This document shows positions 48,019 to 64,000 of a stretch of DNA of 64,000 bases, in pieces. The stretch is from Rhodobacter sp. Lineage in GTDB: Bacteria; Pseudomonadota; Alphaproteobacteria; Rhodobacterales; Rhodobacteraceae. Position 1 is the first letter of the stretch, and each line of letters begins with the position of its first letter. The stretch is from the NCBI GenBank assembly GCA_027484145.1, contig JAIXUH010000030.1:1-64000 (forward strand). Direction: 5' to 3'. A program made the position numbers and the translations under genes. The notes below the pieces were generated by a model. The model was not told the DNA's origin and made no database searches. It saw only the letters and a list, made by a program, of their open reading frames with translations.

Positions 48019-48132
48019 AATGTGTTTTCCATTCTTTCCTGTGGCGGATCAGATGTTTGATCCCTGCTGACAGACATAGGGTACGGTGATACATTTGATA
48101 AATCGATTGATGCTATAAGAGGTATCGGCCCG

Positions 48133-49086
48133 ATGAATTTACGTAGCTTCGATCTGAACCTACTCATGGTGCTGGATGCGCTTTTACGCGAAGGTTCAAC
48201 CGTCAAGGCAGGCGAGCGGGTCGGCCTGTCGCAGCCTGCAGTATCGGGGGCGCTGGCGCGGTTGCGCCATGCGCTAGATGACCCCTTGTTCATTCGCCAT
48301 GGGCAGGGGCTGGTTCCCACTGATTTTGCGCGCGCGCTTGCGATGCCGCTGCGGGCCGAACTTGACCGGTTGGAAGCATTGCTGGCACCGCCGCCAACAT
48401 TCGACCCATCGGCCGCGTCGATGACCTTCCGCCTCGCGGGCAGCGACTTCTTTGGCGAAATCCTGATGCCCGCACTTGCACCGTTCCTGAAGTCGGCGCC
48501 GGGGCTGGGCGTGCAACTGATCGATCTGGTGCCCGACCGTTACATCGACACCTTGGAACGCTACGAGGCCGACATCGCGCTGATCCCCGATGAGGATCTG
48601 CCTGACTGGCTTGAGAAGCGGCCACTGTTCCGGTCACCCTTTACGCTCATCGCGCGCCGGGACCACCGCGAGATTGCCGCCGCCGGGGTTGCGCCGGGCG
48701 ACGCTTTGCCGCTCGACCTGTTCTGTGCGTTGTCACATGTCCTGTTCTCGCCGCGGGGTGCGATGACTGTCGGCACCGATGCTGCCCTTGAACGAATCGG
48801 CCGCAAGCGCCGGGTGATCATGTCGCTGCCAACCTTCGCCGGGGTGTGCCGGACAGTCAGCAGCAGCGATGCGGTCGCCATGGTTCCGCTGCAATTCGCG
48901 CAGTCTGTGTCGGGGTATCTGGGTCTGACTCTCCACCCTCCGTCGATGCCGACCCCTGTGCCGCTGATCATCGCTGCCTGGCACCGGCGCGCCTCGGCCA
49001 ATCCCGCGCATCGCTGGCTGCGCGGCCTGGTCTCCAGCGTCCTTGAGCCTCTGGATGTGTCTGGAGCCGACTTGGAGAGCGCATGA
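48133..49086 (+). CDS. LysR family transcriptional regulator
   Basis: A 317-residue NodD-like LysR protein. The start LRSFDLNLLMVLDALLREGSTVKAGERVGLSQPAVSGALARL (in pieces) carries the HTH at residues 18-45, and the C-terminal effector domain ends AWHRRASANPAHRWLRGLV. It is divergent from the cupin gene, and the shared AT-rich region contains TGATACATTTGATAAATCG, a plausible site. Downstream it is followed by 170 bp without a gene before the convergent GcvT-like gene. Confidence 0.87.
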   Translation: MNLRSFDLNLLMVLDALLREGSTVKAGERVGLSQPAVSGALARLRHALDDPLFIRHGQGLVPTDFARALAMPLRAELDRLEALLAPPPTFDPSAASMTFRLAGSDFFGEILMPALAPFLKSAPGLGVQLIDLVPDRYIDTLERYEADIALIPDEDLPDWLEKRPLFRSPFTLIARRDHREIAAAGVAPGDALPLDLFCALSHVLFSPRGAMTVGTDAALERIGRKRRVIMSLPTFAGVCRTVSSSDAVAMVPLQFAQSVSGYLGLTLHPPSMPTPVPLIIAAWHRRASANPAHRWLRGLVSSVLEPLDVSGADLESA

Positions 49087-49258
49087 CGATAGCGCTGGCC
49101 GGACGCGCAGAAGACCGTTTTCTGTCTGCCTGAAGACCCCCAACCCGCACCAAGAAAGCTGGTTGTCCGCGGCAATAGTGAAAGATCCTTGCGTGGAAGA
49201 CTTGCCGACTGCTTTTCTTCCTACTGACCGGCAGCTTTGGGCCGGCTGCACCCAGTCA

Positions 49259-50362
49259 TCAAGACTTCAACCGCATGCCTTTGGGATCGAAGAATGCCTT
49301 TCGGACAACGGTCGCAGGCTTGCCGAGGACGCTGACTTCAACGCCCTCAATGGCAAATTTCCTCTCGACATGAGCCGTGGCCAGCACCGCGCCCACCGAA
49401 TAGCCATGGTCGGAATAGGTGATACGGCCGATCTCTCGGTCCTCGGCCATCACTGGTGTCTGGGCAGGAATGGGGGTCTCACCTGTCAGCCTTAACCCGA
49501 CCCAAGAGGTCTTGGCGCCCGCGTCGCGGGTCCGCAACAGCGCTTCGCGGCCGATGAAATCGCCTTTGTCGAACTTGATGAAAGCGTCGGTGCCGACATG
49601 GAAGGGGGTGATGCTTTCGTCCATGTCGATGCCATGGGCAGGATACAGCTTTTCGAGCCCGAGGGTGAACATCGCGTTCACGCCGTAAGGACGCAGGCCA
49701 TAGTTCCCCCCGGTGCGGAAGAGCGCATTCCAGACCCCCGCCGCCTCATCTGCAGGAACGAAGAGCTCGAAGCCCAACTCCCCGGTGACACCAGTGCGCG
49801 AGATCATCACCCTTGTTCCGTCGAGGTGCCCCCATGTGAAGTTCCAGCGCTTCAGGGCCGTCAGGTCGGCGTCTTCGATAAGTCCCCGCAAAAGGGCGCG
49901 GGAATTCGGGCCCTGGATGGTCGGAAAGGCCACGGCGGCGGTGATGTCGGTGACATAGGCGCGGCGGCTGCCTGCATGCTCGGCCACCCAGTCGCGGATC
50001 TTCAGCCGGTTGCGCGAGCCTGTGACGATCAGGAAATGCTCCGTCCCCAGCCGAAAGACGGTCAGGTCATCCATGATCCCCCCGTCCGGCGCGCAGACGC
50101 TGGTATAGCACGCCTGGCCCGGGACCATTTTCGCTACATCGTTGACGACCACATGATTGACTAGCGCTTCGGCCTCCGGACCCTTGACGTCGATTTTTCC
50201 CATGGTCGAGAGGTCCTGAACGCCGACATGGGTGCGGGTGTTCAGATGCTCCGCATTTACGTCACCATAGCTGTGGACATTCAAAAAGCCGCCGCCCACA
50301 GGGCCCATCTGGGCTCCAAGGGCTGACGCGAGGGCGTAAAACGGCGTACGGCGCAATGTCAT
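49259..50362 (-). CDS. GcvT-like aminomethyltransferase (folate-dependent)
   Basis: A 367-residue protein of the glycine-cleavage T / dimethylglycine oxidase family, which moves a one-carbon unit from an amino-methyl donor to tetrahydrofolate. Visible segments are GVQDLSTMGKIDVKGPEAEALVNHVV, SRTGVTGELGFELFVP (folate site) and YPAHGIDMDESITPFHVG. The start MTLRRTPFYAL at 50362 has an AAAGGAGGCACC site. No gcvH or gcvP lies nearby, so it may serve a demethylase such as for sarcosine, dimethylglycine or a methylated osmolyte (inference). Confidence 0.83.
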   Translation of the reverse strand: MTLRRTPFYALASALGAQMGPVGGGFLNVHSYGDVNAEHLNTRTHVGVQDLSTMGKIDVKGPEAEALVNHVVVNDVAKMVPGQACYTSVCAPDGGIMDDLTVFRLGTEHFLIVTGSRNRLKIRDWVAEHAGSRRAYVTDITAAVAFPTIQGPNSRALLRGLIEDADLTALKRWNFTWGHLDGTRVMISRTGVTGELGFELFVPADEAAGVWNALFRTGGNYGLRPYGVNAMFTLGLEKLYPAHGIDMDESITPFHVGTDAFIKFDKGDFIGREALLRTRDAGAKTSWVGLRLTGETPIPAQTPVMAEDREIGRITYSDHGYSVGAVLATAHVERKFAIEGVEVSVLGKPATVVRKAFFDPKGMRLKS

Positions 50363-50494
50363 GGGTGCCTCCTTTGTCGGTTCAACCTGCCAATACAAAG
50401 CACAGCCGTCAGCCCCAAGGGCGACACGCTAAGGCAGCTTACGCACTTTCGCCCCGCATGGCGTGAATGAACACTTTGGACCCGGTGTGCTGCT

Positions 50495-51094
50495 TCATTC
50501 CAGATTGACGCCTCTGAGGCGCGGAGCATGGACGTGTGTTTGGACAAGGAATGCAGCAGCTACGCCCGCGACAGCGCCGAACAGGTGGGCCTCCCAAGAG
50601 ACACCCGGTTGACCCGGCAGAATGCCCCAGAGAATGGAGCCATACAACGCACCGACCACCAGTGAGGCAGCCAGCGTGATCAGCGAGCGATCCACCAAGC
50701 CGCGCGCCACAAGGAAGCCGAACCAGCCGAAGACCAGCCCTGACGCACCGACATGGATGGCGGAACTTCCGAACAGCCAGACGAGACCGCCGCCGAGGCC
50801 GATCACCACTGCGTTCACAGGCAGCAAGGCCCGCGTGGTCGTGGCCACCAGCAGCCCACCCAGCACCAAGAGCGGTGCCGTATTCGCCATCAGGTGTGCG
50901 AAGCTTCCGTGCAGGAGGGGCATCGCGATAACGCCATCCAACCCGCTGAGGTGCCTGGGGATCAGGCCGAAGGCCGGATTCAAGCCGTAGCCTGTGATCC
51001 AATTGACGACGTGGACCGCCCAAAGCAATGCGACAAAGGCTACAAGCGCCGCGGCGCGCTGCAAGAATGCGCGCATGAGATCATGTTTCGTCAT
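50495..51094 (-). CDS. Rhomboid family intramembrane serine protease
   Basis: A 199-residue six-helix membrane protease. The catalytic Ser is in [15 protein letters not shown] (GASG), the catalytic His in [12 protein letters not shown], and [18 protein letters not shown] gives the His-Asn oxyanion helix. Start ATG at 51094 ([10 protein letters not shown]) puts a short basic tail before helix 1; an in-frame extension to 51196 is possible. It is 132 bp upstream of the GcvT-like gene, same strand. Confidence 0.88.
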
Positions 51095-51276
51095 GTCTGC
51101 GAACGTATACGTCTCCACAGCGTCTTCAACGGCTTTCGCGCGCAGCACAGAAATCCGACGCTGAAGGCGGGAGTTAGAGGCGACCAACTTTTTCACGCCT
51201 CACGCGAAGCAAATGGCTGCTTCTGGATAGCTGCAACGCGGCATGCGATTGACTTCTCTTTGGCAGCTCTGGGCCG

Positions 51277-51669
51277 TCAATGTAGGACAACTGATTTGCG
51301 AGTTTGTTGCGCCCATTCCGTCGGAAAGGGCTCCAGCACCCTTGCAAGCGTCAGTTCCGCCCCATGCGTCCGCTCCAGGATCGCCTCGACGATGTCCGGC
51401 GCTAGCAATGTCAGCCGCATCACGCGGGTCAGATACGACGGTGTGATGCCCTCACGTTCCGCAAGTTCAGCGAAGGTCGTGAACTCGCCCGACTCCAGCA
51501 TTCGCTTCCACCGGAACGCGCGTGCCAGCGCCTTGATCAACGTGTTGTCGCTTGCCGACGACTGCGGCGCGCCCTCGGGCAACTGCATTTCCTTGCGCCC
51601 ACCGCGCTTTACGAGGCGAAACGGTACATGCACCGTGACAGTGTCGGGAACAAGCCGCGCATCGGTCAT
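51277..51669 (-). CDS. Recombinase-associated HTH protein
   Basis: A 130-residue basic protein. The central part has an HTH look ([24 protein letters not shown], in pieces, about residues 63-87) and the C-terminus continues [16 protein letters not shown]. Such proteins commonly follow large serine recombinases in alphaproteobacterial mobile elements and may direct or limit recombination. Its ATG overlaps the recombinase stop (ATGA). Last gene of the six-gene cassette. Confidence 0.7.
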
Positions 51670-52973
51670 GCTGCGGCACCTTTGCTGACCGTCATCTCGC
51701 GCGACAATCCTGCCAGCCCGTCTGTTCGCAGCCGCAAGTTCAGCCCTTTGGCGCCTATGTCGACGCGCTCCACCAGCAGTGCCACAATGCGCGCCTGTTC
51801 AGCCGGGAACAACTCGTCCCACAGCAGGTCAAGGCGGGTCAGCGAATCCCGCGCTTCGGTTTCGGTGATGAAACCATCCTGTGCGCGGGCTGTCTTCCAA
51901 GTGCCCGCGACGATCTCAGGCTGGCGGAACACCGCACGCAACTGGTTGACGACGGCAGCCTCAATGTCACCCGCTGGCACACGGCCAATGGGACATGACC
52001 CGGCCCCATGCTTCAGAACAGTCTGGCTGACGTAGTAGCGGTACATCCTGCCGCCATTTCGGGTGTGCGTTGGCGAGAACGCTGCCGCATCTGGACCATA
52101 GAGCAGCCCCTTCAACAGCGCAGGCGTGTCGGCGCGGGTTCGGGCTGCACGTTTGCGCGGGCTTTCCGTCAGGATGGCGTGCACCCTGTCCCATACATAG
52201 CGTTCGATGATCGCCGAATGCTCGCCGGGATAGCTGGTGCCCTTGTGGACAGCCTCGCCGATGTAGACCCGGTTGTTCAGCATCCGGTAGATGAACTTCT
52301 TGTCGATCCGGTGGCCACGGGCGGTGGTGACGCCCCGTTCGGCCAGTTCCCGCGCCAGCACCGTGCCGGAACCAATTTCGATGAACCGCGCAAAGACCCA
52401 ACGCACATGGGCGGCATCGGCAGGGTTTTCGACCAGCTTGCGGTTCTTGACCTCGTAGCCAAGCGGCGGGCAGCCGCCCATCCAAATGCCCTTCATCCGG
52501 CTGGCGCGGACCTTGTCGCGGATGCGTTCGGCCGTCACCTCGCGTTCGAACTGGGCGAAGGACAGAAGGATGTTCAGCGTCAGCCGCCCCATAGAGGTGG
52601 TGGTGTTGAACGATTGGGTGACGCTGACGAAGGTCACGCCGTTGCGGTCGAACACCTCGACCAGCTTGGAAAAGTCCATCAGCGAGCGTGACAGGCGATC
52701 AATCTTGTAGACGACCACCACGTCAACCAGCCCATCCTCGATGTCGGCCATCAACCGCCTCAGGCCGGGGCGTTCCAGCGTGCCGCCCGAGATGCCACCG
52801 TCGTCGTACTGATCGCGCACCAGCACCCACCCCTCGGATCGTTGGCTGGCGATGTAGGAGTCACAAGCCTCCCGTTGGGCGTGCAGGCTGTTGAACTCCT
52901 GTTCCAAACCTTCTTCCGAGGATTTGCGGGTGTAGACCGCGCAGCGCAGTTTGCGGACGACGGGTTTGTTCAT
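51666..52973 (-). CDS. Large serine recombinase
   Basis: A 435-residue site-specific recombinase. The resolvase domain (residues 9-155) has the catalytic Ser18 in [11 protein letters not shown], then [11 protein letters not shown] and [16 protein letters not shown]. The recombinase domain follows ([39 protein letters not shown]), with a zinc-ribbon-like or coiled C-terminal part. It inserts or excises DNA between short att sites. It is embedded in an operon with a primase and DUF2924 and both of its ends overlap neighbours by ATGA. Confidence 0.9.
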
Positions 52974-53425
52974 GCCGTCCTCCGATGGTTTTTCAGCCCG
53001 AAGAACACCCAGCCGTTCCACCGCGTGCCGGTGATGGCGCGGGCAATGGCAGAAAGCGACTGGTATGGCCGCCCCTGCCATTCGAACCCGTCGGCTGTCA
53101 CAGTGACGATCTGTTCGACACCCTGCCATTCGCGCAGCAGCCTTGTGCCGGTGATCGGGCGGTCACGATCAGCGCGGATGCGGCGCGTGGTGATATTGCC
53201 GCCATCAAGCTGTTCGCCCAAAGCTTCCAGCCGCCGGATCGTCTCAGGCTTCAGCCCGCCATAGGCCAGTTCCTGAATGCGGTAGGCCAAGCGGGATTCA
53301 AGGTAGCGGCGATTGAAAGGTGGCGGTTCGGTCGCAAACAACTCGCGCCACTTGGCCTTCAACTCGGGCGTCGAGGTGGTCTTCAGCGCGGCCAGTCGCG
53401 CGGGGATGGGATCGTGGTTCGTCAT
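52970..53425 (-). CDS. DUF2924 protein
   Basis: A 151-residue protein of the DUF2924 family, found almost always next to large serine recombinases in alphaproteobacteria. Typical segments are LKAKWRELFATEPPPFNRRY, LESRLAYRIQELAYGGL, and the C-terminal YQSLSAIARAITGTRWNGWVFFG, a SAP/homeodomain-like DNA-binding end. It is probably an accessory DNA-binding factor. Coupled by ATGA to the recombinase. Confidence 0.85.
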   Translation of the reverse strand: MTNHDPIPARLAALKTTSTPELKAKWRELFATEPPPFNRRYLESRLAYRIQELAYGGLKPETIRRLEALGEQLDGGNITTRRIRADRDRPITGTRLLREWQGVEQIVTVTADGFEWQGRPYQSLSAIARAITGTRWNGWVFFGLKNHRRTA

Positions 53426-53625
53426 GCGGTTCTCCGATGCGTTGGAGTTGCATGTGCGCTCTGGTCGGGCGAAGAGTGTAGCGAACTTTCTCCAACGTCG
53501 TCAGAGAGTTGACTTGACTGGCGCATCCGCAGCCGGATCAGGCCAAGGGCCAGAAGCCCGCACAACTCAGCCCGTCGCTGGGCGTGGGTCATCAGAAAGG
53601 GGGGCAGGGGGTTGGGGCGCTTCAT
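53422..53625 (-). CDS. Small basic protein of the recombinase cassette
   Basis: A 67-residue protein. The core THAQRRAELCGLLALGLIRLRMRQSSQ is an amphipathic helix pair; the tail is Ser/His-rich. No domain recognised, but ATGA overlaps at both ends with the primase and DUF2924 genes make it a real translated member of the cassette. Confidence 0.65.
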   Translation of the reverse strand: MKRPNPLPPFLMTHAQRRAELCGLLALGLIRLRMRQSSQLSDDVGESSLHSSPDQSAHATPTHRRTA

Positions 53626-55973
53626 GGCAGATCATTCCCCGAACGCAGTGCGATGCCTGACCATCCCCGGATACGAGGGGTGCGCATTGAACTAAAGCCT
53701 CTGGTCCGAAGTTCTTCGCCAAATGACCGCTGAGAGCCGGCCTCGATCCCGCGGTTTTCAGACCACGTCTTCCACGAGGCATAGAGATCGGAGGATCGTG
53801 CCCAATGTGCGGATGACAATTGGCAAGCATCATCAATCCATTGCCCGATCAGGTCTTCATCCTCGAAATAGGCATTTGCGGCCTTTTGCACGATGGCTGG
53901 GGGGGAAAGCCCGATCTGTTGCCAGGCGCGACAACCGTCCAACATCCAGTTGATGATCCCGTCTTTCTCCATCTTCAACTTGGAAACGAGATCCTTGTCC
54001 CGCTTTTCAGGCGGGATCGTCACGTCGAAAGGAATAAGGTGCAGCCGACGCCGCATCGCCTCTCCGACGCCCCGAAGGCGGGGCCTGCTATTGCCGGCGA
54101 CGATGATCTTGAAAGTCGGGTCAATCTCGAAAAAATCCCGGTGCAGAAATCGCACGCGCAGCCGGTCACCCCCAGTGATTGCTTTGATCCGTGACTCTGC
54201 CCAGGCTTTTCCGTGCTCGGTTTCGCTCACAATCGCCACGCGCGCTTTCGCTATCCCGGCAAGGTCAGTAGGGTGGCGGTCGCCAGTACCCGCGGTAAAG
54301 GTATCCAGTGCTGCTGTGGCTGCGTAATCGCCCAGAAGGTGTTCCAGGACGGCCAGAAATACGCTTTTTCCGTTTGCGCCTGTTCCGCAGAAGAAGAAGT
54401 AGACCTGTTCGATCATTGAGCCGGTCAAGCAATATCCGCAGAGGCGCTGCAGATATGAGATCAGCTCCGGACTACCATCAGTGATCTCAGCTATGAAGCG
54501 GCGCCAGATCGGGCATTCGCCTTCAGGCGATGCTCCAGCCAGTCGCGTATGGCGATGGCTGGGCTCATGCCGGGCCAAGCTTCCAGTTTCTAGGTCCAGG
54601 ATTCCTTTCGGGGTATTGATGACCATAGGGCCGACGTCCCAGGTCTGCTCAGCCGTCACGAAGATCGGATCCGTCCGAGATAACCGCTCAACCGACATCA
54701 TGGTGCGTTCACTGGAAATGCGAGCGGCGGCCTTCTTATCTTGAACCTGAAGCGCCACAGCGCGGCAGGTGTGGCGGATGCAATCTCGCACTTGGTTCAA
54801 ATTGTCCGGTTGCCAAACTGATCCGGACCACCGCATCCAGCCCCCGCGTGATGGCGCGAAACGGAAGTGGTTATGAAATCTCTCAGCAAAGCGATGTGCG
54901 AGATCGTCTTCGCTGCAGCTGACGGGTTTTTGTCCAGGATCAAGCTGGTCGTTGGTCAGAGTGGGGAACGGCCCCAACCCTGCGTGGCTTTGCGAGACAA
55001 CGGTGTTGTCCGGCAGTGGACCGTATTGTTCAATGTCTTTCGCCTGCAAGGACGCAAAGCTTGCGGCAAGCTTTCCTTCATCCCATGGCGGAATGATGCA
55101 GGCTGCGTTGTGTCCACGAACGCGCTCCCATGCATCACCGAGCGATATTCGGCTTGAGCGGACCATGTAAAGCCAATGGCCAATGACCTTCCCGACAGCG
55201 TCGTGACGCGTCACTTCGTCGATGGCGCCGGCTCTGATTGTCTTGGTGAACAGGCCAACGGCAGAGGTTTTGGTGGCGTGAGATCGGCCGGTGTCGATGG
55301 CGAAGCCGATGCCAGCGAACGCAGGCATGTTTTCGACACGGACTTCCAATTCAGAAAGGTCGTAGGTCTGGTCGCGATGCGCCAGGATCTTGACCTCGGA
55401 AAGCACGCCGTGTTTTCCATGGACGCTACCTGCCACCCGGATGGGCTGGTGCAAACTGTCGAAGGATGGGTCGCCCCCCACGCGGCTCTCGATCAATGCC
55501 CGCAGTTTGGCTAGTCGTTGGAGATCTGCTCCATCCGCGGGCTGGGCAAGCCTCCAGTACGCATGAATCTTGGCCTCTCCTTCGATCGTGCGCCCCCCGG
55601 AGCCGACCACAAGCGTCGCTTCGCCCAGATGCGCTTCGAGGTGGGCCAGCTTTTCAGAAATGTTGCCAGCGTCCAGGTCAACCAGCACAACAGCAGACTG
55701 AACGACATCGCCCGCCCTCGCTCTCCCCGGCTCTGCAACCGTTCCTGGGACAACAAACGCGCCGCGTCCCCGGAGTGCTTCTTGATCTGAGCGGGCGATC
55801 AGCGTGTCCGCTGCATCTTGAGGCGAGACAAAAGGCGTGCTGGGCTTGGACCCAGGAACACCCTTTTCGGCGATGAACCGGATGGGCACAAAGCCGTTTA
55901 GTCCAGAGAAGACGACGTCGCAGTAGATGCGAACATTCCCGGGGTCACATTTAGGGATTGGCGGGTTCATCAT
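53622..55973 (-). CDS. P4/D5-type primase-helicase
   Basis: A 783-residue replication protein. The N-terminal half is a primase-polymerase-like region (VVLVDLDAGN, HAYWRLAQPADGADL, DSLHQPIRVAGSVH). The D5_N linker starts near residue 340, and the C-terminal half is a superfamily 3 helicase with Walker A FFFCGTGANGKSVFL (about residue 530) and FKIIVAGNSRPRLRG (motif C/sensor). It opens and primes the element's own origin, as in P4-like satellites and plasmids. ATGA overlap with the HTH gene upstream. Confidence 0.87.
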   Translation of the reverse strand: MMNPPIPKCDPGNVRIYCDVVFSGLNGFVPIRFIAEKGVPGSKPSTPFVSPQDAADTLIARSDQEALRGRGAFVVPGTVAEPGRARAGDVVQSAVVLVDLDAGNISEKLAHLEAHLGEATLVVGSGGRTIEGEAKIHAYWRLAQPADGADLQRLAKLRALIESRVGGDPSFDSLHQPIRVAGSVHGKHGVLSEVKILAHRDQTYDLSELEVRVENMPAFAGIGFAIDTGRSHATKTSAVGLFTKTIRAGAIDEVTRHDAVGKVIGHWLYMVRSSRISLGDAWERVRGHNAACIIPPWDEGKLAASFASLQAKDIEQYGPLPDNTVVSQSHAGLGPFPTLTNDQLDPGQKPVSCSEDDLAHRFAERFHNHFRFAPSRGGWMRWSGSVWQPDNLNQVRDCIRHTCRAVALQVQDKKAAARISSERTMMSVERLSRTDPIFVTAEQTWDVGPMVINTPKGILDLETGSLARHEPSHRHTRLAGASPEGECPIWRRFIAEITDGSPELISYLQRLCGYCLTGSMIEQVYFFFCGTGANGKSVFLAVLEHLLGDYAATAALDTFTAGTGDRHPTDLAGIAKARVAIVSETEHGKAWAESRIKAITGGDRLRVRFLHRDFFEIDPTFKIIVAGNSRPRLRGVGEAMRRRLHLIPFDVTIPPEKRDKDLVSKLKMEKDGIINWMLDGCRAWQQIGLSPPAIVQKAANAYFEDEDLIGQWIDDACQLSSAHWARSSDLYASWKTWSENRGIEAGSQRSFGEELRTRGFSSMRTPRIRGWSGIALRSGNDLP

Positions 55974-56197
55974 TGCTGACCCCCCGTGGTAACGCGCATC
56001 AAATCTTCAAAGGCGAAGACGTCGCTGGCCCTGTAGTAGATGCGGCCGCCAATTTTGATGTAAGCCAGACCGTAATTGCCAGACCGCCACCTTTGCAGTG
56101 TTCGGATTGACCTTTGCCAGCGCGCAGCAACGAGGTGTTCGGCAACAAGTTGTCGCGGATCTGGGTCTTTCCAATCGTAATCGTTTGTCTTGCTCAT
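55970..56197 (-). CDS. MerR-like HTH / excisionase-type DNA-binding protein
   Basis: A 75-residue protein with a helix-turn-helix core (LVAARWQRSIRTLQRWRSGN) and a wing (GLAYIKIGGRIYYRASDVFAFE), the layout of small HTH_17/AlpA-like factors that regulate excision or replication in P4-like elements. It is the first gene of the cassette and its upstream DNA has three AAGCGTGAC repeats that could be its sites. Confidence 0.75.
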   Translation of the reverse strand: MSKTNDYDWKDPDPRQLVAEHLVAARWQRSIRTLQRWRSGNYGLAYIKIGGRIYYRASDVFAFEDLMRVTTGGQQ

Positions 56198-56290
56198 CTG
56201 TTCGCCCCAGCAGCTTGGCCTTGCGGCATGTGGCTATGGTGCGCCATTGCTGAGGGAGCTGCAGTTGCGGGGGCGTGACATCGGCGGCCG

Positions 56291-56373
56291 AAGCGTGACG
56301 CGAAAGACCTGTTTTGGTTCGCGAAATCGTGTGTCAAGCGACCAAGCGTGACAGAACGACGGTAAAGCGTGAC
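56291..56373 (+). repeat. Three AAGCGTGAC direct repeats upstream of the cassette
   Basis: Identical 9-mers at 56291-56299, 56344-56352 and 56365-56373 (starts 53 and 21 bp apart), in the 223-bp gap between the HTH gene and the end of the QueC-like gene. Candidate operators or iterons for the HTH or replication proteins. Confidence 0.5.
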
Positions 56374-56420
56374 AAGGCCGCAAGAATGGCGGGCATCTAG
56401 GGAATCTTGCAGAGGCTCGG

Positions 56421-58286
56421 CTACCGATCTGACGTTTTGAGGTCAGGCGAAAGTCGATAGCCGCGACTGCCTCGTTGAATCAGCGCATCATCAGGAAGTG
56501 GTTCATCCGTCAAAGCGAACCATGCCTCGGACACGTCGCTTTTGCAGCGCCAGACAAGCTGTCGGACGTTTTCCTTTGTTGTCCGGACATCCGCGGCGAT
56601 ATCTCCGGACGCGACAAATCTGGCACCGGCTGCCGGGGTTTGTTTGGCGTGATCTTCATCGAGATAGTGTCGGAGAACATGGACGACATGCGCTTTCTTG
56701 CCACGAACGGTCGTAATGTCTCGGATGTCGACACCGTAGCTGCCCCCTTCTTGAAAGAAGGTCGCCCGTAAAGGAAGACATGGCCCTGTCTCAAGGTCAT
56801 TGAGATCGCCGCCGCCCAAGGCGAGGGCATGGGCTGCCATTCCAAACGTTACTGCTGCCGCTGGCTGAAGTTCGAGGCCCTTTTCGGGTGCAACCATATG
56901 CTGGACCAACAACGAACTGCTTGGCACCGTTTGCTGCGCCAACGCGTCCGCATAGATCTTGTAAGCATTTTCCAAGACGCGCATCGTGCTTGCTGCGTGC
57001 CGCTGATGCAGCGCAAAGACCTTACGCATGATGTCGGCCGGGTTTTCTTCTGGATATCCCTCCGAAATCCGACTGACATCTTGGGCAAAGCGTCCAGTAA
57101 ATGTTCGGAAGTCAGAGGCTGCCAATTCCCGTGCATGACGCGTCCAGTCCACAGCAAGAGTGCGTCCGCGATCAGTGTGTCTCTCACCCGTCAGGACGTC
57201 AAATCGGTACATTTCGCTCGGATCGTATTGCTCTAGACCTGCGGCCAACATCGCAAAGCGACGATCGATGCACTGGCTGCAACGGGAACAATGGGTTATG
57301 AGAGTATCTTGATCGCGAACACTGGTGCAACTAACGCTGTGTCGGATGGCGTCGGTCCCATCGCACTGCGCAATCCTTTGGACCACTTCCGTTTTTGTCA
57401 GCCATGCATATGGGTTCTGGATTGTCGCGGCAGTTGGCAAGATGCACTGGTGCAGCGCATCGATCAAATGGAGCGACCGTGGATGCGTGGTCCGCGTTGC
57501 CATCGCGCCGATGACCTGATCGCTGAAGGGAAGGTTGTGGCTGATGATGCCATTTTCAAAAAAGGTTATGCGCTTGGCACCGAACATCTGGGCCACGACC
57601 TGAGCGACCGCAGCAAACAGGAATGACCGGGACCGCTGTGTCGTCTCCTTTGCTTCCTGTCCAACCCGATGTGCCGGGACATGGATGTGCAGGATGCGCC
57701 GGCCAAATCTGTCGGATAGCCATTTGCTGAGATTGACCTGATGCGGGATCGTCTTCTGGGCTGACCGATGTGTGACGAAGATAAGGTTTTCGGATGTGGA
57801 CTCGAGGCGCTCAAGCGCGCCCGCGAAAGAGTCGAGCCCACCTGAAAACAGGACCACTTCATCCGCCTGAAACCCGTCCGTTTCTTGGTCGAAATCGAAC
57901 CAGTTCTGATCACCGGGAGGGTCTCGGCGCTGGACAAATCGAAAAGAAGCACTGTCCTCCATCAGGAAATCAACGGCCGCAACGAGGGCATCGTTGACGT
58001 GAGGGCGTGACCAGAGGTCTGGCAGTCGCACAGGAATTTGAAACTCAAACTGACGGCGCCAATCCGCACCCATATCGGGTCGCGTTGTCCCGCCACGGGT
58101 TTGCGTGCCATCCGTCGCGAAGATCGCGCAGGCGATGTCGAGAAGGTCCAAGCAGACAGCTTCGGGCTGGACCAGCGTCGCGGCCAGAATCTTGTCGGTC
58201 CCGATCGTGAACGTTGGCTCGGTTCCGTTGATGCGGACAAAGAGTGGGGTGGCACGTCCGCCTATGTCGACCCTCACGTCATTCAT
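56421..58286 (-). CDS. QueC-like PP-loop protein of a Qat-like unit
   Basis: A 621-residue protein. A 140-residue N-terminal domain precedes a QueC-like ATPase core: PP-loop VVLFSGGLDSFAGA (SGGLDS at 148-153), FENGIISHNLPFS, and the QueC zinc set Cys320, Cys333, Cys336, Cys339 (THCSRCSQC). About 270 residues follow with no clear domain. True QueC is near 230 residues, so this is the large defence-associated form seen as QatC and in type IV CBASS, which attach a deazaguanine to a protein N-terminus. First ATG (58286) used; a GTG lies at 58295. It overlaps the partner gene. No queD, queE or queF nearby. Confidence 0.75.
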   Translation of the reverse strand: MNDVRVDIGGRATPLFVRINGTEPTFTIGTDKILAATLVQPEAVCLDLLDIACAIFATDGTQTRGGTTRPDMGADWRRQFEFQIPVRLPDLWSRPHVNDALVAAVDFLMEDSASFRFVQRRDPPGDQNWFDFDQETDGFQADEVVLFSGGLDSFAGALERLESTSENLIFVTHRSAQKTIPHQVNLSKWLSDRFGRRILHIHVPAHRVGQEAKETTQRSRSFLFAAVAQVVAQMFGAKRITFFENGIISHNLPFSDQVIGAMATRTTHPRSLHLIDALHQCILPTAATIQNPYAWLTKTEVVQRIAQCDGTDAIRHSVSCTSVRDQDTLITHCSRCSQCIDRRFAMLAAGLEQYDPSEMYRFDVLTGERHTDRGRTLAVDWTRHARELAASDFRTFTGRFAQDVSRISEGYPEENPADIMRKVFALHQRHAASTMRVLENAYKIYADALAQQTVPSSSLLVQHMVAPEKGLELQPAAAVTFGMAAHALALGGGDLNDLETGPCLPLRATFFQEGGSYGVDIRDITTVRGKKAHVVHVLRHYLDEDHAKQTPAAGARFVASGDIAADVRTTKENVRQLVWRCKSDVSEAWFALTDEPLPDDALIQRGSRGYRLSPDLKTSDR

Positions 58287-59061
58287 TTGAGTCACGCTTC
58301 AGTTTGAGTTCCGAAACGATCTTCTTCATTGCCACAGCGCCGAATTCTGCGGCAGCCTTTGTCGTGATCGTCTTGTCCTCATAAAGTCTCTTGCCGGCCC
58401 AACCTGGTGCGAACTCTTGAATGATGCGCGTGGCTTCGGTTGTGTACTGGGCGAGATTGCTGTCAAAGGCTGATCGCGCCTCAACCGATGCAAAGCGCCT
58501 ACCTTGGCCGATCTCGGTGGACAGAACCCGAGACAGCCAAGAGGAAAGGCTGCTGGCAACAACGCGGCCAAAAAATGCTCGGCTGAACGCGGCGATCCCA
58601 TTGCGTGTAGACAGGTCTCGCAGCGCCAATTAGACATCGGCAGGCGTGGGGTCGAAAAGCCCTGGCAACCGGGCGTTGATATGATCGTTGAGCACACCGA
58701 CCAAACTGCGACCTGCCAGTTGCCCAAGATCTGTTCGGAGTTTTGAGCCGCGCGCCACTTCATCGAGCCTGCGCGTCAGCGCCACGATAACGGCAAATTG
58801 GTCTGGCGTATTGCCGACGGTTAAGCCGATTTGACGAAGAGCATCTCCCAAATCTGCTGCACGAGCGGCACGAGGGACGAGGAAGGATAGACGAACAGCT
58901 TCGACAAATGTTTCATCCCGAGCGGCAACAAGCAGGTCACGTTCTGCAGCGCTGGCGCTGAGGGCTGCAACGGCGGCATCCGTCCCGCCACCCGTGAGGG
59001 CATCTGCAACGGCCGCCCATTTGAGGGACTTGGGAAGCACCACGAGATGAACATGCCCCAT
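58279..59061 (-). pseudogene. QatB-like partner gene interrupted by one in-frame TAA
   Basis: From the ATG at 59061 the frame encodes 143 residues (MGHVHLVVLP...), stops at TAA (58630-58632), and continues in the same frame for about 116 codons to a TGA at 58279-58281, overlapping the QueC-like start. Both parts read as one protein of about 260 residues: helical N-terminus, LSFLVPRAARAADLGDALRQ, then AFFGRVVASSLSSWLSRVLS and IIQEFAPGWAGKRLYED in the second half. It begins Met-Gly, so Met removal exposes Gly. It may be a decayed gene, a recoded gene, or two proteins with TTG reinitiation at 58629. The similarity to QatB is from memory of the family layout, not a search. Confidence 0.55.
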
Positions 59062-59254
59062 AGCCGTCAAGTTCTCCCGCTGTGGTTGTTTTCGATAGCT
59101 GAAGCGGACGACAGGCTTCTGTCAACGCGGCAAATACTCGAACGCCCATCGAAAACGCTGGACCAAGCGAATGACACGATGACGCTTCTAAGGGTAAATT
59201 ACCTTTATACTGCCACATGCGCGCGTGTAGAGAGTTTCAGGTATTCTTGGTTTC

Positions 59255-59294
59255 TTGCGTCATTGCGTCATTGCGTCATTGCGTCATTCCGTCA
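59255..59294. repeat. 8-bp tandem repeat array (5 units)
   Basis: Four exact TTGCGTCA units and one TTCCGTCA unit, head to tail without spacers. It sits 194 bp upstream of the Met-Gly gene start, on the promoter side. Confidence 0.85.
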
Positions 59295-59381
59295 TGGCGC
59301 AGAGCGAACTGGTGTGCTGCTCATGTATCGTCGACCCTGCTAGACCCGTGGATCGCCGCCCCGCTCTTTCCGTGTCGGCAG

Positions 59382-59417
59382 ATGTCGTCAGTTGTCGCCT
59401 TATGTCGTCAGTTGTCG
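59382..59417. repeat. 16-bp direct repeat pair
   Basis: ATGTCGTCAGTTGTCG at 59382-59397 and 59402-59417 (20-bp period), followed by the related TTTGTCGCTTATCG. Possible iterons or recombinase sites. Confidence 0.75.
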
Positions 59418-59516
59418 TGATTTGTCGCTTATCGTAGTTATTTCAATGGGATACGCCGTGTGCTGTGCTCTCCCCAGCCGCGGTGTGACCCGCGGGTTGT
59501 TCTCCCAGGGGGGGCC

Positions 59517-60800
59517 ATGAACGGATCTGCAGAGCTGAGCATCACCTACCGGCCGATTGGCGATCTGATCCCTTATGCGCGGAATGCCCGTACCCATTCG
59601 GAGGCGCAGGTGGCGATGATTGCGGGGTCGATCCGGTAGTTTGGCTTTACCAACCCGGTGCTGGTCGATGGCGAGAGCGGCATCATCGCGGGGCACGGCC
59701 GGGTGATGGCGGCGGGCAAGCTGGGGATGGGATCGGTGCCGGTGATCGAACTGGCGCATCTGACCCCGGCGCAAAAGCGGGCCTATATTCTGGCCGACAA
59801 CGAGCTGGCGGAACAGGCGGGCTGGGACCGCGAGTTGCTGGCGCTGGAACTGGGCGATCTGCGCGACATGGCGGTCGATCTCGGCAGCCTTGGCTTTGAC
59901 GCGGCGGAGTTGGACGCGCTGTTCCGGCATGCGGCGGGGGATGCGCGGGAGGATGACGTGCCGCCTTTGCCGGTGGTGCCGGTGTCGCGGCCGGGCGATC
60001 TGTGGCTCTTGGGGAACCACCGGCTGATCTGCGGCGATGCAACGGATGCTGACACCGTGACGCGGGTGCTGGGTGGGGTTGTGCCGCTTCTGATGGTCAG
60101 CGATCCGCCCTATGGCGTGGCCTACGATCCGGCATGGCGCAACGCGGTGGGGGCGGCCAAGACCCAGCGGGTGGGCAAGGTGCTGAACGATCACCGGGCC
60201 GATTGGCGCGAGGCCTGGGCGCTGTTTCCCGGCGATGTGGCTTACGTCTGGCATGGCGCACTGCATGCCACCACCGTGGCCGAAAGCCTGACCGCCACCG
60301 GCTTTGCCATCCGCAGCCAGATCATCTGGGCCAAGGAACGGCTGGTGCTGAGCCGGGGTGATTATCACTGGCAGCATGAGCCGTGCTGGTATGCCGTGCG
60401 CACCAGCGGCAAGGGCCATTGGGCGGGGGATCGCAAGCAGACCACGGTGTGGAACATCGCCAGCCGCGATCAGGATGCAGCGACGGTCCATGGCACGCAA
60501 AAGCCGGTGGACTGCATGCGCCGGCCGATGCTGAACAATTCCAGCCCCGGTCAGGCGGTCTATGAGCCATTCTGCGGGTCGGGCAGCAGCCTGATCGCGG
60601 CGGAAACCTGCGGGCGGCATAGCCTCGCGGTGGAGTTGGACCGGGCCTACGTCGATGTGTCGGTGCAGCGGTGGCAGGCGTTCACCGGCAAGCAGGCGAC
60701 GCTGGAGGGTGATGGGCGGGGTTGGGCAGAGGTGGCAGAGACGCGTCAGGTGGACGTGGCGGAGGAGCGTCAGGCGGACGCGGCGGAGGTGATGGCATGA
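59517..60800 (+). pseudogene. ParB-like/DNA methyltransferase gene with in-frame TAG
   Basis: From ATG 59517 the frame runs MNGSAELSITYRPIGDL... to codon 40, then TAG at 59637-59639, then continues open to 60800. The first part plus FTNPVLVDG and IIAGHGRVMAAGKLG form a ParB N-terminal domain. The rest is a beta-class methyltransferase, with catalytic SDPPYGVAYD and later the SAM motif FCGSGSSLIAAE. Where TAG stands, relatives usually have Gln (SIRQFGFTNP), so a single CAG to TAG change explains it. The part downstream of the stop has no good start codon. Common in prophages, where it methylates the element's DNA. Confidence 0.75.
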
Positions 60801-61045
60801 TGGTGGGGGCGGCAAACAGACCCCCGGGGGGTGGTCAAATCCTCAGCACTTTTGGCCTTGGGACTGGCACGGGTCGCTCACCTTTTACACGCGCGAATTT
60901 GGCCATGGGGGTGTCTGGTGGGGCAGGGCCGCAATTGCCGCGCAAAGACAAACGCTTGGCATCGCACTCGCCATGGATCGACCCGCGTAACAGTCGACCA
61001 ACTGCGGGGCTGGCCAATGACCCACGCTGACCATCAAGGGGGCTT
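60801..61045. other. Short interval in the phage-like module, no confident gene
   Basis: About 245 bp between the methyltransferase and the first terminase gene. An open frame from the ATG at 60797 (ATGA overlap, 77 codons, MMVGAANRPPGGGQ) exists, but its composition gives no domain and only the overlap supports it. Confidence 0.35.
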
Positions 61046-61048
61046 GTG

Positions 61049-61513
61049 ATGAAAGGCCGCAAACCCAAGCCAACGCACCTCAAGCTCCTCGAAGGCAATC
61101 CCGGGCGGCGGCCCATCAACGGGGCCGAGCCGCAGCCCACCGCGGGCCTGCCCACCTGTCCGGCGCACCTGAATCCCTCGGCCAAGGCGGAATGGAAGCG
61201 GCTGGTGGCCGAATTGCAGGCCATCGGCATCCTGACCCGGATCGACCGTGCGGCGCTGGCGGGCTATTGCCAGTCCTGGGGCCGCTGGGTCGAAGCCGAA
61301 CGCAAGCTGGCCGACACGCCACCGCTGATCCGCACGCCTGCAGGCTATGTGCAGCTGTCGCCCTGGCTCACCATCGCCAACCGCGAACGCGAGTTGATGC
61401 TGCGCTTCATGGCCGAACTGGGCCTGACGCCGTCATCGCGCACCCGGCTGGCGGTGCAGCCGCCGGTGAAGAAGCCGTGGGAGTTTGATGCCTTGGACAA
61501 GTTCCTGAGCTGA
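61049..61513 (+). CDS. P27 family phage terminase small subunit (copy 1)
   Basis: A 154-residue protein. The family start GRKPKPTHLKLLEGNPGRRP is followed by PTCPAHLNPSAKAEWKRLV and the helical core IDRAALAGYCQSWGRWVEAE. It recognises phage DNA for packaging in complex with a large terminase. ATG at 61049 is chosen over a GTG one codon upstream; GGGGGCTTGTG precedes. No large subunit follows within the window. Confidence 0.85.
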   Translation: MKGRKPKPTHLKLLEGNPGRRPINGAEPQPTAGLPTCPAHLNPSAKAEWKRLVAELQAIGILTRIDRAALAGYCQSWGRWVEAERKLADTPPLIRTPAGYVQLSPWLTIANRERELMLRFMAELGLTPSSRTRLAVQPPVKKPWEFDALDKFLS

Positions 61514-61526
61514 GGGAGGGATCGCA

Positions 61527-61997
61527 ATGCCCTGTGCCCCGATGATCTTCTCCGCCCAGCAGCGCGCCGAGGTGGAAACGCTGGCGGCGGTGCTGACCGC
61601 GCAGCAGATGGCGGATTACTTCGGCATCGGGCGGACCACGTTCTTTGCGCTGATGGACCGCGACCCGGATGTCGCAGAACGGTATAAAAGGGGCCGTGCC
61701 CGGGCGGTGGGGGCGGTGGCGCAAAGCCTGGTGGCCAAGGCGCGGGCCGGCAATGTCACGGCAATGATCTTCTACCTCAAGACCCAAGGCGGCTGGCGCG
61801 AGACGAGCCAGATCGACCACATCCTTGCGGGGTCTGCCGGTGATGCGGGGGAGGATGCGCGCCGCATACTGGCTGAACGGCTCGATATGATCGTCGCTCG
61901 ACAGGCGGCTCTTGCTTCGGATCAAAAGATGCCGGCGATCCCCAGCGAAACATCGGATGCACCAGCGCTGGAGGCCACATGGCCCAATCCCGCCTGA
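61527..61997 (+). CDS. Phage-associated HTH protein (terminase small subunit-like)
   Basis: A 156-residue protein with an N-terminal HTH (VETLAAVLTAQQMADYFGIGRTTFFALMDRD, in pieces, about residues 15-45) and a helical remainder (KARAGNVTAMIFYLKTQGGW). The last motif is typical of small phage DNA-packaging or replication proteins. It lies 13 bp after the first terminase gene. GAGGGAGGG before the ATG supports the start. Confidence 0.7.
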   Translation: MPCAPMIFSAQQRAEVETLAAVLTAQQMADYFGIGRTTFFALMDRDPDVAERYKRGRARAVGAVAQSLVAKARAGNVTAMIFYLKTQGGWRETSQIDHILAGSAGDAGEDARRILAERLDMIVARQAALASDQKMPAIPSETSDAPALEATWPNPA

Positions 61998-62197
61998 TGT
62001 CGCTCATCGAAAGCGCCACCAACGTGATCGTGGGCCTTGGCCTTGCAGTGATCACCCAGTTGCTGATCTTCCCGCTTTACGGGCTGCACCTTGACCTGAC
62101 CGACAACCTGCGGATCGCGCTGGTCTTCACCGGTATCTCGCTGTTGCGCGGCTATGCCCTGCGCCGGGTCTTTGTCCACTTTGGTGCCCGGACATGA
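61979..62197 (+). CDS. Small two-helix phage membrane protein
   Basis: A 72-residue protein with two TM helices (NVIVGLGLAVITQLLIFPLYG and IALVFTGISLLRGYALRRVF region). Similar short proteins occur before terminase genes in alphaproteobacterial prophages (DUF7220-like). It overlaps the previous gene by 19 bp and the next by ATGA. Confidence 0.7.
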   Translation: MAQSRLMSLIESATNVIVGLGLAVITQLLIFPLYGLHLDLTDNLRIALVFTGISLLRGYALRRVFVHFGART

Positions 62198-62772
62198 AGC
62201 GCGGACCCAAGCCCATGCCCACAGCCCTGCGGCGCATGCAGGGCAACCTCGGCAAGCGCGGCTATAACCATGACGAGCCGGTGCCACCCGATGCCATGCC
62301 CGACTGCCCGCCGCATCTGAACAGCATCGCGCGGGCTGAATGGGACCGGCTGGCGACCGATCTCTACCGCATGGGCGTGCTGACAGCGGTCGACCGCACG
62401 GCTTTGGCCGCCTATTGCCAATGCTACGGCCGCTGGGTCGAGGCCGAGGAACGCTTGGGCAGCACGCCGATGCTGCTGAAGACCAACACCGGCTACGTCC
62501 AGCAATCACCGTGGCTCTCGATCGCCAACAAGCAGATGGAGTTGATGGGGCGCTACATGGCCGAACTCGGCCTGACCCCGGCATCGCGGTCGCGGGTGGC
62601 GGCTTATGCCGAAGTCCCCAACGACCCGGTGCGCAAGATCGAGATGGTGATCGTCTACAAGGGCGACGATGGCCAGATTTACGAAAAGCCGCTGAACGGC
62701 GAAGGCCCGGCAAAGCTGCGGGACCCTGCCTCTCAGCCTGCCGAGACCTACCTCCTCAGCGGCGACCTCTAG
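62194..62772 (+). CDS. P27 family phage terminase small subunit (copy 2)
   Basis: A 192-residue relative of the gene at 61049: RGPKPMPTALRRMQGNLGKR, DCPPHLNSIARAEWDRLA, VDRTALAAYCQCYGRWVEAE and a longer C-terminal tail (IEMVIVYKGDDGQIYEKP). The two copies are clearly diverged homologues, so both may be inherited rather than recently duplicated, or one came from a different phage. No large terminase follows; a resolvase comes next. Confidence 0.85.
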   Translation: MKRGPKPMPTALRRMQGNLGKRGYNHDEPVPPDAMPDCPPHLNSIARAEWDRLATDLYRMGVLTAVDRTALAAYCQCYGRWVEAEERLGSTPMLLKTNTGYVQQSPWLSIANKQMELMGRYMAELGLTPASRSRVAAYAEVPNDPVRKIEMVIVYKGDDGQIYEKPLNGEGPAKLRDPASQPAETYLLSGDL

Positions 62773-62871
62773 GAAAAGTGAACCTCGCCAATAGTTTGAC
62801 TACACTACCTCACAACATCCCCGTACACATCTGCGCAACGAACGTTAGGCAGGTGTGAACAGGGGGCGGAT

Positions 62872-63576
62872 GTGGCGGCAGGGCAGCGGCTGGTGGCGTA
62901 TGAGCGGGTCTCGACAGCTCGACAGGGGGCGAGCGGGCTGGGGTTGGAAGCGCAGCGCCGGGTCAACGCTGACTATGCCGCTTCAAGGGGCGCCGAGGTT
63001 CTGGCGACCTTCACCGAAGTGGAAAGCGGCCGCAAAGCCAACCGCCCCGAATTGATCAAAGCGCTGCACCTGGCCAAAGTCACCGGCGCCACCTTGGTCA
63101 TCGCCAAACTGGACCGGCTCAGCCGCAACGCCGCCTTCCTCCTCGCCCTGCGCGACAGCGGCGTGCACTTCGTGGCCGTCGACATGCCCGAGGCCAACGA
63201 CCTGACCGTCGGCATCATGGCGCTGGTGGCTCAAGCTGAACGCGAAGCCACCTCGCGCCGCACCAAAGACGCCCTCGCCGTGGCAAAGGCGCGCGGTGTC
63301 AAGCTGGGTAACCCCAACGGAGCAGAAAGCCTCAGGCGCGCGGGTAAGGGCGCTGTGGCGCTTAGGACCACGGTCACAGCCAACGCGACGGCCTTCGCGG
63401 AGGACCTAGCACCGGTGCATGCCGATATCCGTACCTCTGGCCACAGCACGCTGCGCGCCATCGCCGCCGAACTGACGCGCCGCGGCATCAAGACCCGCCG
63501 CGGTGGCCAGAGGCAGGTGGGGAATGTAAAGAAACTGCTGGAAAGGACTCGAGTGATGGCGCTGGCAGTGCCATAG
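62872..63576 (+). CDS. Serine recombinase/resolvase
   Basis: A 234-residue small serine recombinase. Catalytic Ser14 is in VAYERVSTARQ, then LVIAKLDRLSRNAAFLL and the E-helix LVAQAEREATSRRTKDAL. The C-terminal HTH region (AIAAELTRRGIKTRRGGQ) is of the recombinase type. Start GTG at 62872. It probably resolves or inverts DNA of the element; a res site could lie in the 99-bp gap before it. Confidence 0.88.
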   Translation: MAAGQRLVAYERVSTARQGASGLGLEAQRRVNADYAASRGAEVLATFTEVESGRKANRPELIKALHLAKVTGATLVIAKLDRLSRNAAFLLALRDSGVHFVAVDMPEANDLTVGIMALVAQAEREATSRRTKDALAVAKARGVKLGNPNGAESLRRAGKGAVALRTTVTANATAFAEDLAPVHADIRTSGHSTLRAIAAELTRRGIKTRRGGQRQVGNVKKLLERTRVMALAVP

Positions 63577-63648
63577 TGCCCACGAAACATAGGGGCGGCG
63601 AGTTCGTTTGTCTGCGGCTCAAATTGCATGTGATCACTTGGTTGGCTG

Positions 63649-64000
63649 ATGGATTTCTCACTACCTCAGAATGGCGTCGTTGTTTTTGGTTTTGACTCAG
63701 CCTGGACAGATAATCCCAAAGCCCCAGGTGCCATCTGTGCAATCACATTCGATGCAATGGGTCATGCTGGATTTCTTGAGCCCCGCTTGACGTCTTTCCC
63801 GGAGGCCCTGCGCTTTATTGAATCCGTTCGCAATGACTACGCCGTAAGCCTTGTCGCTCTTGATCAACCAACGATCGTACCTAACCTCTCGGGAAGCCGT
63901 CCGGTGGACCAGGTAGCGGAGTCTCTCGTTTCCTTTGTTGGTGGCGGCGTACAGCCAGCCAATCGCGGTAAGGTCGGCATGTTTTGCGACAACGCTCCAA
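63649..64000 (+). CDS. DUF429 protein (3'-truncated by window end)
   Basis: The open frame from the ATG at 63649 runs off the window after 117 codons. It begins MDFSLPQNGVVVFGFDSAWT, then DNPKAPGAICAITFD and VALDQPTIVPN, the conserved start of the DUF429 family, an RNase H-like fold with catalytic Asp residues. Such genes are often found at island edges. Start by first ATG; no strong ribosome site seen. Confidence 0.7.
   Translation, partial: MDFSLPQNGVVVFGFDSAWTDNPKAPGAICAITFDAMGHAGFLEPRLTSFPEALRFIESVRNDYAVSLVALDQPTIVPNLSGSRPVDQVAESLVSFVGGGVQPANRGKVGMFCDNAP

What the first reader, a model, noticed from the sequence alone, without database searches (positions are those of the whole stretch)
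56421..59061. Orphan QueC-like plus partner unit resembling Qat BC without A and D
A 621-residue QueC-like protein with PP-loop SGGLDS and a QueC zinc Cys set overlaps a partner gene of about 260 codons. Qat defence has four genes (ATPase, B, QueC-like C, TatD-like D). Here only B-like and C-like parts are present, next to a P4-type replication/recombination cassette, and no other queuosine genes are near. It could be a minimal or degraded Qat-like or CBASS-like system. No two-gene system of this kind is known to me.
Basis: partly seen in the sequence, partly recalled or inferred. Interest (0 to 1): 0.82.

Follow-up and report, generated by a model that had tools for sequence, protein, structure and literature searches.

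The report
Two-gene QatB–QatC-like mobile defence unit
The window carries one copy, with its first gene broken, of a widespread and apparently undescribed two-gene relative of the Qat anti-phage system, in which a QueC-like enzyme probably attaches a still unknown group to the N-terminal glycine of its partner protein.

Summary
C (56421-58286, minus strand, 621 aa) is a QatC-type enzyme: PADLOC QatC E=2.8e-50; best Foldseek match is solved QatC, E=1.1e-15. Intact relatives exist.

It is not a broken qatABCD locus. Of 117 non-redundant long-C loci, 115 have B just upstream. None has QatD; QatA is found in none, apart from one KAP-like ORF on the other strand. Long C groups apart from QatC, scores under NCBI's QatC cut-off and has an extra C-terminal module. 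No library searched recognises B.

All 112 readable B starts encode Met-Gly, matching the N-terminal glycine essential in QatB (PMC13279940). Nineteen of 36 carrier genomes, the window's included, lack QueC, QueD and QueE by the models used, so CDG is an unlikely co-substrate.

Best reading: a natural QatBC-only system, cargo of prophage-like and P4-type elements. Defence is inferred, not shown. The window copy is probably inactive unless the stop is bypassed or is a sequencing error.

The parts
56421..58286 (-). C: QatC-type QueC-family protein, 621 aa (ATG; GTG 58295 alternative)
57828..57845 (-). SGGLDS ATP (PP-loop) motif, residues 148-153
   Evidence: coordinates computed from ATG 58286
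57480..57497 (-). TRTTHP, residues 264-269; T264 and T266 align with the P. aeruginosa QatC Thr pair T278/T280
57270..57329 (-). Zinc cysteines C320, C333, C336, C339
56424..56780 (-). Extra C-terminal module, about residues 503-621, predicted winged-helix-like
   Evidence: secondary structure of the model; sequence support weak
58633..59061 (-). B, first part: ATG with Met-Gly-His start, 143 codons
58630..58632 (-). In-frame TAA interrupting B (codon 144)
58279..58629 (-). B, second part: same frame after the stop, 116 codons plus stop
59255..59299 (.). 8-bp tandem repeat, 5.6 copies, upstream of B
59373..59427 (.). 10-bp tandem repeat, 5.5 copies, upstream of B
53622..55973 (-). Context: D5-type (P4-like) replication protein, 447 bp downstream of C
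   Evidence: PF08706, PF19263; 25 of 107 relatives have a D5 relative 66-450 bp downstream of C
52970..53425 (-). Context: DUF2924 protein
   Evidence: PF11149
51666..53129 (-). Context: serine recombinase
   Evidence: PF00239, PF07508, PF13408
59658..60800 (+). Context: DNA methylase, divergent neighbour of B
   Evidence: PF01555

Best explanation
The locus is one member, with a nonsense-interrupted B, of a two-gene Qat-type system that naturally consists of B and C only. C is a QatC-type PP-loop ATP-dependent ligase with an added C-terminal module. It binds B, whose short flexible N-terminus begins Met-Gly-His. After the methionine is removed, C activates a carboxylate-bearing small molecule with ATP and joins it to the N-terminal glycine of B; the modified or activated B-C complex then restricts phages. 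The pair travels as cargo on prophage-like and P4-type elements. Shown here: pairing, lack of A and D, conserved active site and N-terminal glycine, predicted folds, mobile context. Inferred: complex formation, the conjugation reaction, phage restriction. The co-substrate is probably not CDG, because many carrier genomes seem unable to make it. The window copy most likely does not work unless the TAA is read through, bypassed by re-initiation, or a sequencing error.
For: C matches QatC by profile and predicted fold (QatC 9y01_B E=1.1e-15; QueC 1.2e-4; Cap9 2e-3). ATP loop, Zn cysteines and Thr site conserved in 104 rows (T266 in 104; T264 Thr in 97, Ser in 7). B lies just upstream of C on one strand in 115 of 117 loci; 112 of 112 readable B starts give Gly2. 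Solved QatB is the only one of 50 listed Foldseek hits of the B model (intact relative L026) with high probability, 0.99, TM 0.50/0.58. QatA/QatD profiles recover 13/13 and 14/14 left-out controls but find no QatD and no adjacent QatA here. Published (PMC13279940, parts 1-3 of 6 read): QatB and QatC alone protect against lambda; QatB Gly2, the QatC ATP site and the Thr pair are essential. Mobile context. QueC, QueD and QueE absent by the models used in 19 of 36 carriers.
Against: No phage assay or biochemistry was possible. B is not recognised as QatB by sequence: a canonical QatB HMM hits none, profile-profile probability is 7%, NCBIfam QatB hits 3 of 101 members at E 0.02 or worse. B lacks the long disordered tail and the TS of MGTS. 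The Foldseek E-value for B, 0.17, is not significant alone. Among 50,697 phage records the only matches to C are two weak ones (28% over a third of C), so the viral evidence rests on predicted viral contigs. The window's B is broken. QatC's own reaction is unproven even in the published system.
Confidence: 0.6

Rival explanations
1. B-C controls its own mobile element (replication, copy number or lysogeny): the C tail binds DNA near B or the D5 gene and the B-C complex switches the module.
For: In 25 of 107 loci a D5 relative starts 66-450 bp after C on the same strand; predicted winged-helix-like tail; tandem repeats upstream of B in the window and in five near relatives.
Against: Only 6 of 58 D5 relatives with enough upstream sequence carry the pair; the pair also occurs without a D5 relative in the fetched flank (69 of 107); repeats are not general (4 of 105 by exact 9-mers); tail types vary.
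Confidence: 0.15
2. True deazaguanylation as in Cap9: C joins CDG to B, the CDG being imported or supplied by a phage that makes 7-deazaguanines.
For: Same enzyme family and N-terminal glycine; Libby et al. (PMC13329287, parts 1-3 of 5 read) propose carboxydeazaguanylation for QatC; 12 of 36 carrier genomes have QueC.
Against: CDG-reading Tyr/Asp replaced by Thr, and changing the Thr pair to Tyr/Asp abolished Qat defence in print (PMC13279940); 19 of 36 carriers lack QueC, QueD and QueE by the models used.
Confidence: 0.15
3. The unit is a toxin-antitoxin-like or other stability module of the element, not an anti-phage system.
For: Two overlapping genes on mobile elements; patchy (5 of 385 class genomes have B); decayed copies exist.
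Against: Neither protein matches a toxin or antitoxin family beyond single weak hits; both the enzyme family and the start of B match a known defence pair.
Confidence: 0.07
4. A remnant of an ordinary qatABCD locus.
For: A and D are missing and B is broken.
Against: Relatives with intact B and C lack A and D too; separate group in the tree; B is a different sequence family.
Confidence: 0.02

Closest known systems
qatABCD and its QatB-QatC core (PDB 9ZEE/9ZEF, 9VLK, 9Y01)
   Same: QatC-type fold with extensions around a QueC core, SGGxDS, four Zn cysteines, Thr pair at the substrate site; helical partner encoded just upstream and starting Met-Gly; published: B and C alone suffice against lambda.
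   Different: No QatA or QatD; long C is mostly 600-725 aa with an extra variable C-terminal module; B is a separate sequence family with MGHxRLGxLP and no long disordered tail; the six long C scored lie below NCBI's QatC cut-off.
Type IV CBASS Cap9 with its CD-NTase
   Same: QueC-family enzyme acting, by inference here, on an N-terminal glycine of its partner.
   Different: Cap9 is about 185 aa and keeps the Tyr/Asp CDG site (PMC13329287, PMC13279940); its partner is a CD-NTase.
Canonical QueC
   Same: Core fold, ATP and Zn motifs.
   Different: About 220 aa (PMC13329287), other substrate motifs; the window genome has no QueC over cut-off.

Membership tests
qatABCD | QatC core fold with N- and C-terminal extensions | tested here: met
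   AF2 model pLDDT 91.5, pTM 0.77; QatC 9y01_B E=1.1e-15, target TM 0.72, 429 columns
qatABCD | SGGxDS, four Zn Cys, Thr pair at the substrate site | tested here: met
   first Thr is Ser in 7 of 104 rows
qatABCD | NCBIfam QatC curated cut-off (280 bits) | tested here: not met
   window 195.9; five other long C 187.6-223.1; two canonical controls 359.3 and 513.9
qatABCD | QatB partner of the known family | tested here: inconclusive
   sequence: no; fold: QatB prob 0.99, TM 0.50/0.58, E 0.17
qatABCD | Partner N-terminal MGTS | tested here: not met
   Met-Gly in 112/112 readable starts; third residue His 109, Asn 2, Gly 1
qatABCD | Long (30-90 aa) disordered N-terminal tail of B | tested here: not met
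   only residues 1-7 under pLDDT 50, first helix at 13, in intact relative L026
qatABCD | Adjacent QatA KAP ATPase | tested here: not met
   not in 117 loci but for one KAP-like ORF in L054, opposite strand; none in the window genome
qatABCD | Adjacent QatD TatD-like nuclease | tested here: not met
   0 of 117 loci; one genome match, 77.6 bits against a cut-off of 230, about 14 kb away
qatABCD | Anti-phage activity | not testable with these tools
   needs plaque assays
Type IV CBASS | Tyr/Asp CDG-reading pair in the QueC protein | tested here: not met
   Thr at the aligned positions
Type IV CBASS | CD-NTase partner | tested here: not met
   window halves and relatives match no such family in Pfam, NCBIfam, PADLOC or PHROGs
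Canonical QueC | TIGR00364 cut-off | tested here: not met
   20.7 bits vs 150.3

The most novel reading that the evidence does not exclude
A natural, widespread QatBC-only immune family, carried by prophage-like and satellite elements in several phyla, in which a QatC-type enzyme joins a non-deazaguanine metabolite to the N-terminal glycine of a new partner family, with exchangeable C-terminal modules as sensor or output. The absence of CDG-making genes in many carriers would then exclude 7-deazaguanine as the general QatC co-substrate.
Probability: 0.4. Interest if true: 0.82.

Novelty: new variant of a known kind. Interest (0 to 1): 0.62.

Why it matters
Published work found by deletion that QatB and QatC alone can protect, and left open what QatC attaches to QatB (PMC13279940). 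Here nature shows the same reduction as a recurring two-gene family with its own partner protein, unseen by the annotation libraries searched. The invariant Met-Gly start in a partner that looks unlike QatB by sequence strengthens the N-terminal modification idea from independent data, and carriers without the CDG pathway give a direct way to test which co-substrate is used.

Tried and rejected
Broken qatABCD locus: rejected by survey, tree and genome search. Ordinary QueC and Cap9: rejected. A recurring third gene after C: 24 of 108 loci have a same-strand ORF of 80 aa or more starting -60 to 120 bp from the C end; the printed starts look unrelated, but they were not compared by program. RNA element: only a tRNA in 46000-64000. 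Sigma-70 promoters and terminators: no more than in shuffles. Tandem repeats upstream of B as a general operator: exact 9-mers three times or more in 4 of 105 loci, one of them a run of C; controls 1 of 208. D5 scan with one sequence found nothing, redone with alignment A7. Winged helix by sequence: PDB search gives nothing better than E 0.028; Trans_reg_C in 4 of 56 tails, best E 0.0022. PHROGs on C was not completed.

Rows dropped before counts: of loci L014-L187 (174), those with C under 560 aa (cut, broken or short, among them plasmid L187, which has a C fragment and no B) and L021-L024 (canonical or third type) were left out, leaving 156, then 117 at 90% identity. The search for related loci kept the best 80 of 233 relatives, 80 of 158 and 80 of 573. 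Neighbour Pfam scan: 124 of 164 chosen ORFs, from 17 of 22 chosen loci. The start check was off by one; the clean count is. In one of the 112 starts there (L116) the expected codon is not ATG, GTG or TTG and the nearest start, also Met-Gly, was taken. Five loci had no readable start (three cut by the contig end, one with N, one beginning inside B).

Full report
Observation. On the minus strand the window holds C (56421-58286, 621 aa from ATG; GTG 58295 is an alternative) and, upstream and overlapping it by 8 nt, B (58279-59061). B spans 261 codons in one frame, stop included, but is cut by an in-frame TAA at 58632-58630, codon 144. A profile of 101 relatives matches the window over positions 1-259 of 260 with one TAA inside. 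In most relatives B is one uninterrupted frame.

What C is. PADLOC names it QatC (E=2.8e-50). NCBIfam QatC scores 195.9 bits, under its cut-off of 280; TIGR00364 QueC 20.7 against 150.3; PF06508 25.5 against 22. The PDB sequences hit are QatC 9vlk and 9zee. The AF2 model (pLDDT 91.5) has solved QatC as best Foldseek match, E=1.1e-15, target TM 0.72; QueC (1.2e-4) and Cap9 (2e-3) follow. In the 104 rows of A3 SGGxDS, four cysteines, R218, R220, T266, T267, H268 and P269 are invariant; T264 is Thr in 97 and Ser in 7. Counting on the alignment to 9zee, T264 and T266 are T278/T280 of P. aeruginosa QatC, and R220 its R233. Gao et al. (PMC13279940, parts 1-3 of 6 read) report that the Thr pair replaces the CDG-reading Tyr/Asp and is essential for defence, and that R233 contacts ATP.

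Extra module. Canonical QatC in the 14 control loci is 417-457 aa. The 117 non-redundant long C range from 583 to 922 aa, 109 of them 600-724. In the window the model from about residue 503 on shows strands, three helices and more strands, winged-helix-like to my eye; sequence support is thin and no fold comparison of the tail alone was made. Tails differ: 80 of 117 end in a GYRL-type motif, 13 match an LxxHL-type pattern, 24 are other, some looking like variants of the first two. Module exchange is my inference.

What B is. No family in Pfam, PADLOC, PHROGs or NCBIfam covers the 101 B relatives; NCBIfam QatB matches 3 members, best E 0.02. A canonical QatB HMM hits none; profile-profile gives 7%; no PDB sequence matches better than E 0.077. 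The AF2 model of the intact relative L026 (pLDDT 93.5) is helical, and solved QatB is the only one of 50 listed Foldseek hits with high probability (0.99; TM 0.50/0.58), though its E-value is 0.17. B is probably a distant QatB homologue or analogue. With a profile lacking the first 15 residues, B bodies were found in 116 of 117 loci, 115 of them just upstream of C on the same strand; in L065 the C frame is over-extended, and L153 begins inside C. Of 112 loci with a readable start (97 ATG, 8 TTG, 7 GTG) all encode Gly as residue 2 and 109 His as residue 3 (one start, L116, is off the expected codon). The consensus begins MGHxRLGxLPxxRxW. Of the 11 canonical QatB taken as annotated, 9 also begin Met-Gly.

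A two-gene family, not a remnant. QatA and QatD HMMs from 14 canonical loci recover every left-out control (13/13 and 14/14). In the 117 long-C loci they find no QatD and one KAP-like ORF, in L054 on the other strand; 84 of the 117 have at least 2.5 kb on both sides. In a quick tree of 134 rows long C (118), canonical QatC (14) and a third type (2) each fall on one side of a branch (SH-aLRT 86, 89, 100; the first two are below the star level of 95). A B-first search found B in 5 of 385 class genomes: the window and three full-length copies have long C beside them, while the fifth is a decayed B with no C in its 3.3-kb stretch. So the family is patchy. A phylum could be read for 65 of 117: Pseudomonadota 57, Acidobacteriota 3, Verrucomicrobiota 3, Planctomycetota 1, Thermodesulfobacteriota 1; a Leptospira plasmid has it too.

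Context. The window unit lies between a D5-DUF2924-serine recombinase module and a methylase followed by terminase small subunit genes. Of 107 relatives of at least 8 kb, 60 have a related serine recombinase, 55 DUF2924, 43 the methylase and 38 D5; in 25 the D5 gene is 66-450 bp downstream of C on the same strand. Part of this set comes from predicted viral contigs, which biases it. Among 124 neighbour ORFs, 7 match Resolvase, 7 Phage_integrase and 4 D5_N. Conversely only 6 of 58 D5 relatives with enough upstream sequence carry the pair, so it looks like cargo. Against a phage home: in 50,697 phage records only two weak matches to C occur. In L315 and L316 recombinase, DUF2924 and methylase are 73-79% identical to the window's, but D5 is 43-45%; the matching C proteins (L033, L040) are 44% and 42%.

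Substrate clue. The window genome (100% complete) has no QueC over cut-off (two weak matches of 24 bits), no QueD, no QueE of the TIGR04508 type, no QatA and no KAP ATPase. Of 38 genomes searched 36 carry long C (in G050 and G698 the gene is broken); two handles, L038 and L098, were not held. Of the 36, 12 have QueC over cut-off and 20 no QueD match; 19 lack both, and all 19 also lack the QueE type searched. Controls ring in the same genus: G007 has QueC and QueD side by side. Limits: the QueD model misses G702 and G064, which have QueC and QueE; other QueE types were not searched; completeness is not told for many of these genomes; import or phage supply of 7-deazaguanines is not excluded. 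With the Thr pair this argues that CDG is not the general co-substrate. G004, with a canonical Qat locus (L023), also lacks all three.

Mechanism. From published Qat work plus the features above: C binds B, ATP activates an acid, the amine of Gly2 of B is acylated, and the B-C complex blocks phage. Only anatomy and conservation are shown here. The window copy probably does not work, since everything after residue 143 of B is lost from the main product; read-through, or re-initiation at the TTG right after the stop, is possible but untested.

Literature. Searches showed me no description of a BC-only family (35 papers hold 'qatc', 30 listed, most unrelated). Of two further QatBC papers cited by Gao et al., one was looked up and is not held, the other was not looked up. 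Libby et al. (PMC13329287, parts 1-3 of 5 and passages read) report that about a third of their QatC cluster neighbours qatA and qatD, which leaves room for this family, but the text I read does not discuss it.

Noticed in passing
window 59255-59299 and 59373-59427: Two short tandem arrays (8-bp x5.6, 10-bp x5.5) upstream of B; near relatives L026, L029, L109, L111 and L119 have 9-bp arrays there, in L026 and L029 two arrays in opposite orientation. Possible operators or iterons.
   Followed up: partly
L022:8738-12444 and L024:9575-13266: A third QueC-family arrangement: 187-188-aa protein starting MSDGPHxSLP, 454-455-aa QatC-like protein (105-123 bits to NCBIfam QatC), HTH plus IrrE-type peptidase protein, and a further ORF. 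May be another undescribed system.
   Followed up: partly
L315, L316 versus window 51277-60800: Recombinase, DUF2924 and methylase 73-79% identical but D5 43-45% and C 42-44%, as if the B-C-D5 block evolves or is exchanged separately.
   Followed up: partly
L019, L045/L108, L131, L132, L038, L204/L205, L187: Other decayed or partial copies: C split in L019, L045/L108, L131, L132; B split in L132 and L038; B fragments without C in L204/L205; C fragment without B in plasmid L187.
   Followed up: partly
L039 (contig length 1211499, as G019:C292): Record titled Oceanobacillus, but the same-sized contig belongs to a genome of the window's own family; perhaps a mislabelled assembly.
   Followed up: no
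window 61046-61513 and 62194-62772: Two terminase small-subunit genes (PF05119) near each other, followed by a second resolvase at 62872-63576.
   Followed up: no
L054:7691-9046: A KAP-ATPase-like ORF (451 aa, E=5.6e-16 to QatA) on the strand opposite a long-C pair.
   Followed up: no
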